Below are positions 1-62,587 of a DNA stretch of 62,587 nucleotides, piece after piece (within the stretch, counting starts at the first letter, position 1; each line of letters begins with the position of its first letter). The stretch comes from Clostridia bacterium (GTDB lineage Bacteria; Bacillota; Clostridia; Oscillospirales; CAG-272). Position numbers and translations under genes: made by a program. Below the pieces are notes generated by a model. It worked only from the letters and a program-made list of their open reading frames with translations. It was not told where the DNA came from and searched no databases. The DNA is taken from the NCBI GenBank assembly GCA_017547755.1, contig JAFYOX010000064.1, positions 1-62,587 of the forward strand, written 5' to 3'.

Positions 1-52
1 AAAACCTTTTTGCAAAAAGGTTTTCCCAAACCCTTTCCAAAAAACTTTATAC
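1..52 (-). repeat. Intergenic palindromic repeat, inverted copy, cut by window start
   Basis: Positions 1-24 form a perfect palindrome (AAAACC, T-run, GC, A-run, GGTTTT), followed by a tail to 52 that is the reverse of the shared tail GTATAAA-GTTTTTTGGAAAGGG. It faces the copy at 155-217 across a spacer, with both palindromic cores outward. The core may be cut by the window edge. Confidence 0.75.
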
Positions 53-83
53 AGAAAAATAAATTATAGAAATACTTTGGATA

Positions 84-120
84 TAGAAAAACGGTGAGTT
101 TGGTACTCACCGTTTTTCTA
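84..120. terminator. Strong hairpin, possible bidirectional terminator
   Basis: A 16-bp perfect stem (84-99 with 105-120, loop TTGGT) has an A-run at the base of one arm and a T-run at the base of the other. It could end transcripts from either side, including the GH92 gene on the minus strand. It lies in the spacer between two inverted palindromic repeats, so it may instead belong to that composite element. Confidence 0.55.
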
Positions 121-154
121 TTTCGAATCTGCACAAACTTTGTCCCTGTTTCCA

Positions 155-217
155 GTATAAAAGTTTTTGAAGATAGGGTTCGGGGAAGGAACTTTTTTCA
201 AAAAGTTCCTTCCCCGA
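155..217 (+). repeat. Intergenic palindromic repeat, forward copy
   Basis: Tail GTATAAAAGTTTTTGAAGAT followed by a 36-nt near-perfect palindrome at 181-216. This 63-nt unit matches 57947-58009 with a single difference (A175 against G). Just upstream, 128-144 carries TCTGCACAAACTTTGTC, which recurs exactly at 57920-57936. The copy abuts the 3' end of the GH92 gene and could act as its terminator. Confidence 0.85.
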
Positions 218-7446: not shown

Positions 7447-7456
7447 AATAAAGTTC

Positions 7457-7493
7457 TTTGAGGAAATCTTTTTTCGAAAAAGGTTTCCTCAAA
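7457..7493 (+). terminator. Terminator of sdaA, related to the local repeat core
   Basis: TGAGGAAA and TTTCCTCA arms enclose a T-rich/A-rich centre (7459-7492). The shape matches the dispersed repeat cores and is followed by AAATTCTTTATTTTT. Confidence 0.65.
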
Positions 7494-12310: not shown

Positions 12311-12455
12311 CTTATAAGGTTATAAGCGGTAACAAAAAAGTCTTTTTTCACACTTCCGCGCGAAAAAAGACTTACAAAATCCATTGATTCTTATAAGGTC
12401 TCTCCTCGGCAGGAAGCAAATGCTTTTACTGTAACCTGCTGTCTTTGGTTCAACA
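12311..12455 (-). promoter_or_regulatory. L10-type ribosomal leader with terminator hairpin
   Basis: The minus-strand leader of rplJ contains AACCAAAGACAGCAGG followed by CTGCCGAGG, the conserved parts of the Bacillota L10 leader that bind L10(L12)4. Downstream, a 12-bp stem (12337-12348 with 12361-12372) followed by a T-run forms an intrinsic terminator or attenuator. The self-complementary CCTTATAAGG just before GGAGG (12311-12320) echoes a CCTTATAAG in the leader (about 12389-12397), a possible alternative pairing. Confidence 0.85.
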
Positions 12456-12463
12456 ACGTTATG

Positions 12464-12493
12464 TATTATAACACAGCGATAACCCTTTGTCAA
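12464..12493 (-). promoter_or_regulatory. Promoter of rplJ-rplL
   Basis: Minus-strand TTGACA (12488-12493), 18-nt spacer and TATAAT (12464-12469), placing the start just upstream of the L10 leader. Confidence 0.85.
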
Positions 12494-15936: not shown

Positions 15937-15993
15937 GTAAAAAAGTTTTTGAAAGGGGTCCGGGGAAAACTTTTTCCAAAAAGTTTTCCCCGG
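15937..15993 (+). repeat. Intergenic palindromic repeat, forward copy
   Basis: Tail (AAAAAAGTTTTTGAAAGGGGT) then a 34-nt perfect palindrome at 15960-15993. It lies between two genes that are probably co-transcribed, so it may set their ratio or end part of the transcript. Confidence 0.85.
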
Positions 15994-17183: not shown

Positions 17184-17198
17184 TCAAATAGAGTTTAT

Positions 17199-17253
17199 CG
17201 GGGAGGAACTTTTTGCAAAAAGTTCCTCCCCGAACCCTTCTTCAAAAACTTTT
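17199..17253 (-). repeat. Intergenic palindromic repeat, inverted copy (left end of a pair)
   Basis: A 34-nt perfect palindrome (17199-17232) is followed by the reversed tail. It pairs with the forward copy at 17374-17428; the interior holds two hairpin-like stretches with versions of the TCTGCACAAACTTTGTC motif. Confidence 0.85.
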
Positions 17254-17373
17254 GAACAAATATTTTGGACAGAGTTTGTGCAGAACGCCCGTTTTGCACG
17301 CTTTTTATTTTTACAGACAAAAAGTACGTCCAAACCGTTCGGTCTGCACGTACTTTGTTGATATAATAGTCCG

Positions 17374-17428
17374 AAGTTTTTTGAAAAGGGGTCTGGGGAA
17401 AAACTTTTTGCAAAAAGTTTTTCCCCAG
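17374..17428 (+). repeat. Intergenic palindromic repeat, forward copy (right end of a pair)
   Basis: Tail AAGTTTTTTGAAAAGGGGT then a 36-nt perfect palindrome at 17393-17428, directly abutting the 3' end of the DHHW-protein gene. May terminate both convergent genes. Confidence 0.85.
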
Positions 17429-17435
17429 AGTTTCT

Positions 17436-27224: not shown

Positions 27225-28127
27225 ATGAACAGCATCATCATGCGCGCGATTTCGTCCGATGGCGGGATCCGCGTGATCTACTGCGACAGCACCGAAATTG
27301 TAAAGAAATCCTGTGAGATCCACCACACCTCCAAAACGATGACCGCGGTTCTCGGCCGTGCGCTCACCGGAACTTCGCTGATGGCGAGCCTTCTCAAGGA
27401 CAAGGACAACACGCTGACGTTCCAGCTTCGCGGCGACGGTCCCTGCGGCAGTGTTGTCTGTGTCGGCGACTACATGGGCAACGTACGCGGCTACGTGGAT
27501 GATCCGTCCGTGGAACTTCCTCCGAATGCGGTCGGCAAACTGGACGTCGGCGGCGCGGTCGGACGCGGATCCATGTACATCATCAAGGACCTCGGCATGA
27601 ACGAGCCCTACGTAGGGGTTGCGCCGATCGTTTCCGGCGAAATTGCGGAAGATCTCACGGAATATTTTGCGACCAGTGAACAGACGCCCACCGTCTGCGC
27701 GCTTGGCGTTCGTGTGGATCACGACAACATGTGCTACGCGGCCGGCGGTTACCTCGTTCAGCTGATGCCCGGCTACTACGAAGAAGACATTCCGATCCTC
27801 GAAGGCAACATCAGCAAGATGGAATCCGTTTCCAAGCTGATCGCCGACGGCAAGACCGGCGAAGAGATCATTGCCATGATCCTCGAAGGCATCGGCTACG
27901 AAATGTTTGACGAATTCGACATCGACTATCTCTGCCCGTGCGACCGCGAAAAGTACCTCCGCGCGCTCATCGGTCTGAACGAAGAAGACATGAACGAGCT
28001 CCGCGAAGCCGGCGAACCCGTCGAAACCAACTGCCGTTTCTGCGGCAAAAAGTTCGTTTTCGAACTCGACGAGCTCGATGCCGCCCGTGCGGAAGCCAGA
28101 CGCAAGTCTGCTGACTCCGAAGAATAA
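27225..28127 (+). CDS. hslO: Redox-regulated chaperone Hsp33
   Basis: Holdase activated by oxidation and unfolding that protects proteins during oxidative stress. The N-terminal domain starts NSIIMRAISSDGGIRVIYCDSTEIV, with TGTSLMASLLKDKDNTLTFQLRGDGPCGSVVCVGDYMGNVRGYV near 45-90. The redox switch is in the C-terminal zinc region: CPC near residue 237 and CRFC near 269, matching CxC...CxxC. The length, 300 aa, is typical. A palindromic repeat fills the space immediately upstream. Terminated at 28138-28175. Confidence 0.96.
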   Translation: MNSIIMRAISSDGGIRVIYCDSTEIVKKSCEIHHTSKTMTAVLGRALTGTSLMASLLKDKDNTLTFQLRGDGPCGSVVCVGDYMGNVRGYVDDPSVELPPNAVGKLDVGGAVGRGSMYIIKDLGMNEPYVGVAPIVSGEIAEDLTEYFATSEQTPTVCALGVRVDHDNMCYAAGGYLVQLMPGYYEEDIPILEGNISKMESVSKLIADGKTGEEIIAMILEGIGYEMFDEFDIDYLCPCDREKYLRALIGLNEEDMNELREAGEPVETNCRFCGKKFVFELDELDAARAEARRKSADSEE

Positions 28128-28137
28128 TTCAATCCTT

Positions 28138-28175
28138 ACCTCCCGGGACTTATGTTTCGGGAGGTGTTTTTGTTT
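28138..28175 (+). terminator. Terminator of hslO
   Basis: ACCTCCCG (28138-28145) pairs with CGGGAGGT (28158-28165), followed by GTTTTTGTTT. Confidence 0.85.
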
Positions 28176-28197
28176 GTGAGTGCGGGTTTTTCGTTTA

Positions 28198-28873
28198 GGG
28201 GATACGGGGGATACGGGGGATACGGTCGCTTTTTGAAAAAAGCTCCGCAAAAACTTTTATACGGTGTAGCCGGTTTGTTGGGTTGATATGGGAGAGAAAA
28301 AAGAATTTTTTGATGGGGCTGTGCGCTGACATTTGGGATATCCCAGCCTATAAAATGGGAGCGATCCAAAACCTATGTAGTAGTGGAGACGGAAGTCAGG
28401 GGCCGCCGAGACCCTGACTTCCCACGCCGTATGGGATAACCGTGATTTCGTGCAATCGATTGAAATCCTTCTACATTTTGTCAGCTTCCGCGCGGCTTGG
28501 CTATACCGCCGTCCGCGCTTTCCGTCAGTTCTATCGGCTGACGTATCGTCTGCACAAACATAAAGCACGAACGGCGGTAGCCAAGGAGTGCGGATGCTGA
28601 CAAAATGCAGAAGGGTATCTTCACTTCGCACGATATCCCGGTTATCCCATACGGCGAGGGAAATCAGGGTCTCGGCGGCCCCTGATTTCCGTCTCCACCC
28701 TTCCTCAGGCTTTGGATCGCTCCACTCCTGTCAACTGGGATAAACTAAATGGCTACGCACAGACCCATCAAGAATCCCCCTTTCAAACCCATATCAGCCC
28801 CACAAACCGGCTACATCGTATAAAAGTTTTTGCGGAGCTTTTTTCAAAAAGCGACCGTATCCCCCGTATCCCC
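28198..28873. repeat. 676-bp imperfect palindromic element, non-coding
   Basis: Left arm 28198-28521 and right arm 28562-28873 are inverted copies of each other over their whole length, leaving a 40-nt centre that itself holds CGTCAG/CTGACG (28523-28528, 28538-28543). The ends carry GTATAAAAGTTTTTGCGGAG plus a palindrome, related to the short repeats elsewhere. Each arm contains a conserved 11-bp hairpin (28391-28422; 28659-28690). No significant ORF lies inside. The left arm is also homologous to 62304-62587. It could be a non-autonomous mobile element or a large structured RNA. It fills most of the 886-nt gap 28128-29013. Confidence 0.9.
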
Positions 28874-29013
28874 TTTCCAAACGATCCGCACACTCTCCCC
28901 CATGCAGTTTTTTCAAAAAACTTTTCCCGGAAACCGTCGATTTTTAACCCCGTTTATGTTATAATGGACGCAACTTAATTCCAAGCTGTACGGCTTGACA
29001 ATGCGAGGTTTTT

Positions 29014-29907
29014 ATGGCTAATCTGCTTGTTGTTCTTCTGATCCTGCTGTATACGTGCCAGTCGGGTTTCGCGAATATGTTCCAGCGGAACTATCCCGGC
29101 GACAAACGGTACGCATCGCAGGTGTACTCCGTGTTTTACGGAGTGATCGTCTCTCTTGCGACCTTCATTTTTGCCGGATTTTCCATCCGTCCGTCGCTCA
29201 CGACCGCTCTGCTCGGCATCGCCAACGGCGCGGTTCTGGTGACCTATAACGCCATGCTTATCAAGGCTTCGGCGGCCGGTCCGTTCTCGATCGTCATGAT
29301 CTTCAACCTCTCCGGCGGTATCCTGATCCCGATGTTCCAGTCGATCCTGCAGGATCCCACCCAGCTTTCCGCGCTCCAGTACGGCGCGATCGCCCTCATG
29401 CTCGTTTCCTTCGTCTTCCTCAATCTGGAAGATAAAAAGAGCGGCGAAAAAACCGTCTCCGCGAAATTCCTGATCTACTCTCTCCTGCTCGGTCTCGCGA
29501 ACGGTATTTACGGTACCCTTCTCAATGTCCAGAAATCCCTTATGAACGAAGCCGAAAGCGCGGAAATGATCGTCTGCACGTTCCTTTCCTCCGCCGTCTT
29601 CGCGTTCGTTCTTCTGATGATCCAGGCCGGCAAGTCCGCTCTCCCGAGCTTCCGTCAGAATACCAAATCCGCGATCTTCGTCACCGCGGCATCCGTTTCC
29701 GCGGCAGCGGCAGTCAATCTCCTGATGTACGCTCTCAGCCTCGTCAACGTCGCGGTCCTCTACGCGATGGACAACGGCGGCGTCCTGCTCGTGTCGGTCC
29801 TGTGGTCGGTCGTCATCCTCAAGGAAAAGATCGGCCGCAACAAGATCATCGGTCTCGTGCTTGCCCTCATCGCCATCTTCGCGCTCGGCTTCCTGCACGG
29901 AGTCTGA
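29014..29907 (+). CDS. EamA/DMT-superfamily transporter
   Basis: Integral membrane protein of the drug/metabolite transporter type with about ten helices, made of two five-helix halves (about 1-140 and 150-297). The first half reads LLVVLLILLYTCQSGFANMF and LLGIANGAVLVTYNAMLIKASAAGPFSIVMIFNLSGGILIPM; the second half ends DNGGVLLVSVLWSVVILKEKIGRNKIIGLVLALIAIFALGFL. The substrate is unknown. RBS GCGAGG; a TATAAT is at 28960-28965. The hydrolase gene follows 4 nt downstream. Confidence 0.88.
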   Translation: MANLLVVLLILLYTCQSGFANMFQRNYPGDKRYASQVYSVFYGVIVSLATFIFAGFSIRPSLTTALLGIANGAVLVTYNAMLIKASAAGPFSIVMIFNLSGGILIPMFQSILQDPTQLSALQYGAIALMLVSFVFLNLEDKKSGEKTVSAKFLIYSLLLGLANGIYGTLLNVQKSLMNEAESAEMIVCTFLSSAVFAFVLLMIQAGKSALPSFRQNTKSAIFVTAASVSAAAAVNLLMYALSLVNVAVLYAMDNGGVLLVSVLWSVVILKEKIGRNKIIGLVLALIAIFALGFLHGV

Positions 29908-33365: not shown

Positions 33366-33420
33366 TAAGTTTTTTGAAAGGGGTTTGGGGGAATTTTTTC
33401 CGCAAAAAGTTTCCCCCAAG
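33366..33420 (+). repeat. Intergenic palindromic repeat, forward copy in GH116 leader
   Basis: Tail TAAGTTTTTTGAAAGGGGT then a near-perfect palindrome (33385-33419), ending 13 nt before the ATG at 33433. Placed between promoter and start codon, it would form a hairpin in the mRNA leader. Confidence 0.85.
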
Positions 33421-57827: not shown

Positions 57828-57834
57828 TGTTTTT

Positions 57835-57888
57835 GCGGGAAACCTTTTTTGAAAAAAAGGTTTCCCGCACCCTTCCCAAAAACTTTCC
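57835..57888 (-). repeat. Intergenic palindromic repeat, inverted copy (left end of a pair)
   Basis: A near-perfect palindrome (57835-57868, GCGGGAAACC and GGTTTCCCGC arms) is followed by the reversed tail. It pairs with the forward copy at 57947-58009. The interior carries a 12-bp hairpin (57899-57910 with 57928-57939) and the motif TCTGCACAAACTTTGTC. Confidence 0.85.
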
Positions 57889-57946
57889 GGCAACAAGAAA
57901 AGACAAAGTTGGGTGCAAATCTGCACAAACTTTGTCTTTCTTTTTT

Positions 57947-58009
57947 GTATAAAAGTTTTTGAAGATGGGGTTCGGGGAAGGAACTTTTTTCAAAAAGTTC
58001 CTTCCCCGA
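57947..58009 (+). repeat. Intergenic palindromic repeat, forward copy (right end of a pair)
   Basis: Matches 155-217 at 62 of 63 positions, including a 36-nt core (57973-58008). It abuts the 3' end of the sulfotransferase gene, as the other abuts the GH92 gene. Confidence 0.9.
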
Positions 58010-59618: not shown

Positions 59619-59690
59619 GGTCCGTTGGTCAAGCGGCTAAGACGACGCCCTCTCACGGCGTAAACAGGAGTTCGATTCTCCTACGGATCA
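59619..59690 (+). tRNA. tRNA-Glu (anticodon CTC)
   Basis: A 72-nt cloverleaf: acceptor GGTCCGT pairs with ACGGATC (one G-T), discriminator A, D-loop with TGGTCAAGCGGCTAAGACG, anticodon stem CGCC/GGCG with loop CTCTCAC (anticodon CTC), and T-stem AGGAG-TTCGATT-CTCCT. CCA is not encoded. It reads GAG; a second tRNA-Glu for GAA is expected elsewhere. Confidence 0.95.
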
Positions 59691-62258: not shown

Positions 62259-62303
62259 AACGCTCCTTTGCATAATCGATGGGATGTGCGGGGGTGGAGG
62301 ATA

Positions 62304-62587
62304 GGGGAGACGGGGGAAACGGTCGCTTTTTGAAAAAAGCTCCGCAAAAACTTTTATACGGTGTAGCCGTTTTGTGTAGTTGATATGGGGAGAAAAAAGA
62401 ATTTTTGAGGGGTTTGTGCGTAGCCATTCAGTTTATCCCAGTTGACAGGGGTGGAGCGATCCAGGACCTATGTAGTAGTGGAGACGGAAATCAGGGCATT
62501 CGCTCCCTGCTTTCCCACGCCGGCTATGGATACGATGATATCGTGCGCCTTTTTAGAATTCAGCTACATATTATTGGTTATCCGCAC
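62304..62587 (+). repeat. Half of a large palindromic element, truncated by window end
   Basis: Homologous throughout to the left arm of the 28198-28873 element: GGGGAGACGGGGGAAACGGTC, then GAAAAAAGCTCCGCAAAAAC, TTATACGGTGTAGCCG, GTGGAGCGATCCAGGACCTA and the hairpin at 62486-62515. It lies just upstream of the flippase gene. The inverted partner arm should follow beyond the window. The remaining 62259-62303 shows nothing else. Confidence 0.85.

What the first reader, a model, noticed from the sequence alone, without database searches (positions are those of the whole stretch)
28198..28873. A 676-bp non-coding near-palindrome with related copy at the window end
Both arms (28198-28521 and 28562-28873) are inverted copies over more than 310 bp with a 40-nt centre, and no plausible ORF is inside. 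A third homologous arm starts at 62304. Such a long interrupted palindrome is normally unstable, so its persistence suggests selection, recent insertion, or sequence divergence between arms that limits hairpin extrusion. It could be a non-autonomous mobile element, a large structured RNA or a nucleoid or partition site.
Basis: seen in the sequence. Interest (0 to 1): 0.82.

Follow-up and report, generated by a model that had tools for sequence, protein, structure and literature searches.

The report
Giant two-ended hairpin repeat between genes
The sequence is one copy of a DNA element of about 650-700 bases, without genes, that folds back on itself and is scattered in dozens of copies between the genes of a few related bacteria; it looks like an oversized relative of the small hairpin pairs that spread through bacterial genomes.

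Summary
The palindrome is real (261 of 311 aligned arm columns identical; score 198 against at most 16 in 200 shuffles) and is one member of a family. The window's genome holds 63 arms and two sister species 74 and 122; 16 of 25 genus genomes hold none, and of 294 other genomes of the order one gave a single weak match. Copies are built alike: one A-type and one B-type inner end (25 of 26 pairs), a nearly fixed central gap, and at each end a hairpin with a CAAAAACTT-like tag, the ends facing each other. Shorter facing pairs lie elsewhere in the same window. One site is empty in two sister species. No target duplication was found (0 of 25 palindromes; 11 of 15 for a different element used as control), and no mobilizer. 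Single arms fold no better than shuffles, which speaks against a structured RNA. Best reading: a non-autonomous mobile element of REPIN-like architecture with an unknown mobilizer and strong within-species homogenisation. The link between the two halves of the window copy may be an assembly switch; the family does not depend on it.

The parts
28198..28873 (.). long imperfect palindrome, one copy of the family (repeat traceable to about 28180-28891)
28198..28521 (+). A arm (inner end of A type)
28562..28873 (-). B arm (inner end of B type)
28522..28561 (.). centre between the arms
28226..28256 (+). end motif M: small hairpin plus CAAAAACTT tag, 31 nt, identical in most copies
28824..28854 (-). 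end motif M of the other end, facing the first
28391..28422 (+). local hairpin H2 of the A arm
28490..28518 (+). local hairpin H3 at the inner end of the A arm
28659..28690 (-). local hairpin H2 of the B arm
28565..28591 (-). local hairpin H3 at the inner end of the B arm
62299..62587 (+). second copy, one arm, cut by the contig end
28137..28166 (+). terminator-like hairpin of the upstream gene, about 30 nt before the element
27225..28127 (+). flanking gene, Hsp33
   Evidence: Pfam PF01430
29014..29907 (+). flanking gene, EamA-like transporter
   Evidence: Pfam PF00892
1..217 (.). short facing pair of tagged hairpins (cut by the contig start)
17198..17429 (.). short facing pair of tagged hairpins
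57834..58009 (.). short facing pair of tagged hairpins

Best explanation
A non-autonomous, once-mobile intergenic element. Shown: its two ends are small hairpins with a CAAAAACTT-like tag that face each other, as REPs do in a REPIN; between them lies a long body made of an A arm and a B arm in inverted order. Inferred: the two facing ends are recognised by an enzyme supplied elsewhere, probably in a single-stranded or cruciform state, and the whole unit is copied into neutral sites between transcription units without duplicating the target. Once there, copies recombine with one another and between their own arms, which homogenises them within a species, and they decay by internal deletion to short hairpins. 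The enzyme is not known.
For: Copy number: 63 arms in the window's genome, 74 and 122 in two sister species; 65 copies of the 34-nt end motif with up to 3 mismatches, 0 for the reversed control. Unit structure: one A and one B inner end in 25 of 26 pairs; central gap 34 nt in 11 of 13 pairs of the own genome and 31 nt in 26 of 29 pairs of a sister, with no outward or tandem pair among the 45 of 63 and 80 of 122 arms whose rows I copied. Facing ends: 19 facing, 3 back-to-back, 1 tandem neighbour pair in the own genome's fetched stretches; 12, 1, 0 in a sister. Insertion: at the L047 site two sisters carry the terminator tail running straight into the next intergenic stretch, and the own genome has the element between. 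Site choice: 29 of 66 outer flanks hold an outward promoter-like site, 6 an inward one, shuffles 11.6 sd 3.5; terminators point at the element in 5, away in 1. Decay: short remnants with both ends at several sites.
Against: No target duplication in 0 of 25 palindromes, so there is no direct signature of transposition. No mobilizer: the RAYT-like gene of the genome lies beside GTAG REPs, not beside these ends, and DDE_Tnp_1 genes lack the ends. Only one clear empty site was read in full; several other sites are shared between species (L048, L054, L055), so much of the family is old. The genome is 75% complete, in 117 contigs. The same end motif occurs unpaired in other taxa, so it need not be a mobility signal. 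The RNA-model control gives 2 pairs with changes on both sides against 1.5 in shuffles.
Confidence: 0.68

Rival explanations
1. A domesticated boundary element: the palindrome sits between transcription units and works as a two-way insulator or terminator, or protects transcript ends, and is kept by selection.
For: Copies lie between terminators and outward promoters (29 of 66 outward promoter-like, 5 of 66 terminators pointing in). The end motif is nearly invariant in the own genome, and in other taxa it often stands unpaired after a stop codon and before a terminator-like hairpin (by eye).
Against: Gene-order-conserved sites are empty or reduced to remnants in sister species. 16 of 25 genus genomes have no arm. 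Neither strand of the end motif carries a T run after its hairpin, and the scan finds no terminator inside the element. The same placement is expected from selection against harmful insertions.
Confidence: 0.15
2. A MITE mobilised by a DDE transposase that leaves target duplications, now too old to show them.
For: In three other genomes of the genus the same end motif sits inside an ordinary element of 234-282 bp with TAGCCGATTGCAAAAC ends; 11 of 15 copies have a 10-14 bp duplication.
Against: 0 of 25 palindromes have a shared flanking word of 9 or more, the level of mismatched flanks. The TAGCC ends have 0 matches in the own genome and the two sisters with the palindromes.
Confidence: 0.1
3. 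A large structured RNA or a regulated RNA hairpin.
For: Two local hairpins are kept in 448 of 450 cells of 25 arms, with a two-sided change in 10 and in 12 of 25 arms.
Against: Single arms fold like shuffles. The second two-sided change is the A/B split, one old event. No promoter-like site in 28050-29050. No Rfam match. Five rows with inserts or a divergent hairpin were dropped before the count; one search has all 30 rows.
Confidence: 0.04
4. An assembly artefact (inverted chimeric join).
For: 33 of 58 loci lie at contig ends. In the window the Hsp33 and EamA sides are not neighbours in two sisters; the missing partners lie next to broken copies at the ends of two other contigs, one of which shares 43 nt with the window copy.
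Against: Arms differ by type in 25 of 26 pairs; flanks of 10 of 13 uninterrupted copies are neighbours in at least one sister, where full copies also occur.
Confidence: 0.03

Closest known systems
REPINs (REP doublets forming hairpins; Bertels and Rainey 2011, PMC3116915, passages seen)
   Same: two tagged hairpins in inverted, facing order around a spacer; predicted to form one hairpin; extragenic; many copies; unpaired ends also occur; no coding content
   Different: the tag here is CAAAAACTT-like, not GTAG; the long form has a body of about 560 nt with its own A and B arms; no RAYT lies beside it
TIR families beside TIRYT genes (Di Nocera et al. 2013, PMC3733652, passages and section 16 seen)
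   Same: long inverted repeats in moderate copy number, some self-complementary and in dimers; their GGGGWSAS motif fits the GGGGAGAC variant just outside the end motif here
   Different: no tyrosine transposase with these ends was found; the motif fit is a resemblance, not a test
ERIC, YPAL, NEMIS/Correia and other bacterial MITEs (named in PMC3733652; details recalled)
   Same: intergenic, non-coding, imperfectly palindromic, dispersed
   Different: that paper gives MITEs as 70-300 bp with 15-30 bp TIRs; this is about 650-700 bp, palindromic over nearly its whole length, and without target duplication
Foldback elements (recalled)
   Same: long inverted arms around a short centre
   Different: no transposase link and no target duplication

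Membership tests
REPIN | two hairpin-forming repeats in inverted, facing order | tested here: met
   19 facing, 3 back-to-back, 1 tandem; sister 12, 1, 0
REPIN | GTAG-tagged REP at the ends | tested here: not met
   end motif is TCGCTTTTTGAAAAAAGCTCCGCAAAAACTT
REPIN | cognate RAYT gene flanked by the same repeats | tested here: not met
   RAYT-like genes of nine loci: GTAG-type repeats at 5 of 9, the palindrome's ends or arms at 0 of 9; genomes incomplete
REPIN | mobility as a unit | tested here: inconclusive
   unit structure, one empty site, no recent insertion seen
MITE | dispersed, non-coding, with terminal inverted repeats | tested here: met
MITE | target-site duplication | tested here: not met
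   0 of 25 with a shared word of 9 or more; control element 11 of 15
MITE | autonomous partner with the same ends | tested here: inconclusive
   none near DDE_Tnp_1, Y1_Tnp or REP transposase loci; other transposase families were not searched
Structured RNA | fold more stable than shuffles | tested here: not met
   single arms z -0.90 and 0.05; the whole is extreme only because it is a palindrome
Structured RNA | transcript | not testable with these tools
   no expression data
Partition or nucleoid site | bound protein and regular position on the chromosome | not testable with these tools
   draft genome in 117 contigs

The most novel reading that the evidence does not exclude
A class of mobile doublets distinct from REPIN and MITE: CAAAAACTT-tagged hairpins, present unpaired in several bacterial groups, that in one genus became the facing ends of both short (about 100-230 bp) and giant (about 600-700 bp) palindromes. 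The giant form flips by recombination between its own arms and exchanges modules with other copies, so that copies at the same site in two species are no more alike than copies at different sites.
Probability: 0.3. Interest if true: 0.7.

Novelty: new variant of a known kind. Interest (0 to 1): 0.5.

Why it matters
Long palindromes are held to be unstable in bacteria (general knowledge). Here dozens of copies of several hundred bases persist in one genome, at sites shared by sister species, with arms that keep about 72% identity while exchanging modules. That offers a natural test of how bacteria tolerate, copy and homogenise long palindromes, and of whether hairpin doublets other than GTAG REPs are mobile. 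It also has a practical side: these repeats break draft assemblies (33 of 58 loci at contig ends).

Tried and rejected
Led nowhere: blastn against phages and plasmids gave no match; the exact 28-mer of the end motif and a pattern of the centre gave 0 viral contigs. Rfam gave only a tRNA and an L10 leader in the window; with a lax threshold on six loci only two overlapping mir-2300 matches below the gathering score, taken as chance. Paper searches for this family listed nothing that describes it; I saw listings, and passages or one section of two papers only. Rejected: mobilisation by the RAYT-like gene, because its neighbours are GTAG REPs; compensatory arm-to-arm evolution, because the arms of one copy are no more alike than others; element-driven chromosome rearrangement at the window site, first favoured, then withdrawn because an assembly switch between copies explains the same facts. 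The weak hit in G229 (24.8 bits) was looked at as raw sequence and taken as chance. In notebook entry 3 I wrote 12 of 16 for the duplications of the TAGCC element; recounted it is 11 of 15. Not done: a synteny control for gene pairs without an element; transposase families other than PF01609, PF01797 and NF047646.

Full report
What is there. The repeat 28198-28873 has two inverted arms and a 40-nt centre; 261 of 311 aligned columns are identical, score 198 against at most 16 in 200 dinucleotide shuffles. It lies between the gene of Hsp33 and that of an EamA-like transporter (Pfam), about 30 nt after a terminator-like hairpin. Three overlapping ORFs have no Pfam match.

A family. The left arm finds 59 pieces in its own genome, with 40 of 120 candidates scored. 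The 34-nt end motif has 65 copies with up to 3 mismatches; the reversed control has 0. Grouped, this is 58 loci, 33 of them within 500 bp of a contig end, where 3.8% is expected. A model of the inner 146 nt of the arm, built from 25 arms after dropping five rows with inserts or a divergent hairpin, finds 63 arms here, 122 and 74 in two sister species (G004, G013), 13, 7, 5, 2, 1 and 1 in six others and none in 16 of 25 genus genomes. In 295 genomes drawn from the order only the own genome and one weak match (24.8 bits) appear.

A unit with polarity. Inner ends come in two kinds, A and B. In 25 of 26 pairs of inner ends one is A and the other B; the exception is a weak A/A pair in G004. The gap between the two model matches is 34 nt in 11 of 13 pairs here and 31 nt in 26 of 29 pairs of G004; no outward or tandem pair occurs among the rows I copied, 45 of 63 and 80 of 122 arms. 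An inverted assembly join would give two like arms, so the family is not such an artefact.

Ends. Each end carries a small hairpin followed by a CAAAAACTT-like tag. In this genome the end motif is mostly the one called M here, TCGCTTTTTGAAAAAAGCTCCGCAAAAACTT, but some ends have another hairpin with a similar tag, and the sister G004 uses that other type at its ends in the copies read. A scan for hairpins with such a tag finds three more, shorter facing pairs in the window (1-217, 17198-17429, 57834-58009) among 11 tagged hairpins; three shuffled windows give 0 and the reversed window 1. In the fetched stretches of the own genome neighbours closer than 800 nt are facing in 19, back-to-back in 3 and tandem in 1; in G004 12, 1, 0. 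In Desulfoluna, two Oscillospiraceae MAGs and a Ruminococcus MAG the tagged hairpins are not in facing pairs (0 facing of 17, 10, 11 and 9 hairpins). This is the arrangement of REP singlets and REPIN doublets (passages of PMC3116915).

Evolution. The arms of one copy are not specially alike: A_i-B_i 0.723, A_i-B_j 0.716, permutation p 0.18; A-A 0.790, B-B 0.754 among 14 copies, some of them partial. Between this genome and five copies of G004, A-A is 0.552 and B-B 0.595, less than A against B within the genome. At a site occupied in both species (L055 and L245) identity is 0.51 and 0.55, no higher than elsewhere; at L048 and L243 it is 0.54 and 0.64, while flanking genes are about 80-92% identical. 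Both loop variants of hairpin H2 occur in A and in B arms. So copies are homogenised within a species, and outer parts of the arms are exchanged between A and B sides; recombination between the arms of one copy would do this while keeping one A and one B end. That step is inferred.

Local hairpins. Two short hairpins per arm are paired in 448 of 450 cells, one pair switching A-T to G-C in 10 of 25 arms, another in 12 of 25, the latter being the A/B split. Cells with two-sided changes exceed all 500 shuffles, but the number of such pairs (2) does not exceed shuffles (mean 1.5), and relatedness is not controlled. Whole single arms fold like shuffles (z -0.90, 0.05). I read this as hairpin DNA rather than as a structured RNA.

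Sites. Flanks of 13 uninterrupted copies were searched in G013 and G004. The two flanks are neighbours in at least one of them for 10 of 13 (9 in G013, 6 in G004); not for the window, L030 and L039. Of seven sites read in full, L047 is empty in both sisters, which carry the terminator tail running straight into the next intergenic stretch; at L044 I see no element in either. L055 has a full copy in G004 and a short hairpin remnant in G013; L048 has a full copy in G004 and a remnant in G013; L054 has a full copy in G004 and none in G013; L037 and L041 have remnants in G013. Sites with longer gaps (L027, L035, L058) were not read. No target duplication: 0 of 25 palindromes have a shared flanking word of 9 or more, against 11 of 15 for a TAGCC-ended element of other genomes in the genus, which carries M inside in 11 of 15 copies. 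Outer flanks hold outward promoter-like sites in 29 of 66, inward in 6, shuffles 11.6 sd 3.5, which fits insertion surviving only between transcription units.

Mobilizer. The genome has a RAYT-like gene (166 aa; NCBIfam REP_Tyr_transpos 68.9 bits under a cut-off of 80; Pfam Y1_Tnp 23.6 over a cut-off of 23). It is followed by two inverted GTAG hairpins, a REPIN, and the same REPIN sits inside a palindrome copy in contig C23. Of nine RAYT-like loci in the genus, five have GTAG-type repeats and none the palindrome's ends or arms. Nine DDE_Tnp_1 loci have none either. The mobilizer is unknown.

The window copy. In both sisters Hsp33 is followed by rubrerythrin instead. In this genome rubrerythrin lies beside a broken copy at the end of contig C15, and the gene that precedes EamA in G004 lies beside a broken copy at the start of C59. 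C59 begins with 43 nt identical to the window copy; other contig ends share 20 to 104 nt with other copies in 23 of 34 ends examined. This is what a reciprocal exchange between two copies would leave, but also what an assembly switch would. I do not claim a rearrangement.

Verdict. A genus-restricted family of giant, polar, two-ended palindromes, most likely non-autonomous mobile elements of REPIN-like architecture. It fails the defining tests for REPIN (tag, RAYT) and MITE (duplication), so it is filed as neither.

Noticed in passing
window 1-217, 17198-17429, 57834-58009; singles 7451-7491, 15943-15993, 33367-33411: Shorter facing pairs and unpaired copies of hairpins with a CAAAAACTT-like tag between genes.
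   Followed up: partly
L103, L109, L111, L118, L127, L144 and others: The exact 28-nt core of the end motif recurs in Desulfoluna and in Oscillospiraceae; in 21 of the 96 loci GCCTCCGGCGG stands just before it, in two phyla.
   Followed up: partly
L121, L125, L152, L171, L173: The end motif follows the same gene tail (...MTVAVAVAIEEASK, or the same bases) in several MAGs; in L121 that tail stands in a different context.
   Followed up: no
L303 977-1477 (G000 contig C89): RAYT-like gene followed by a GTAG REPIN; the same REPIN is nested in a palindrome copy (L022).
   Followed up: yes
L304 about 1400-1580 (G004 contig C113): A RAYT-like reading frame with two GTAGGGACA-type hairpin halves inside its coding sequence.
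   Followed up: no
L078-L087, L251, L253, L266-L268: A 234-282 bp element with TAGCCGATTGCAAAAC ends, 10-14 bp target duplications in 11 of 15, carrying the end motif M in 11 of 15.
   Followed up: partly
L037, L044, L068, L057, L078, L244: Small extra hairpins inserted at several points of the arms.
   Followed up: no
window 12325-12466 and 59619-59690: L10 leader (RF00557) and a tRNA gene, as expected.
   Followed up: no
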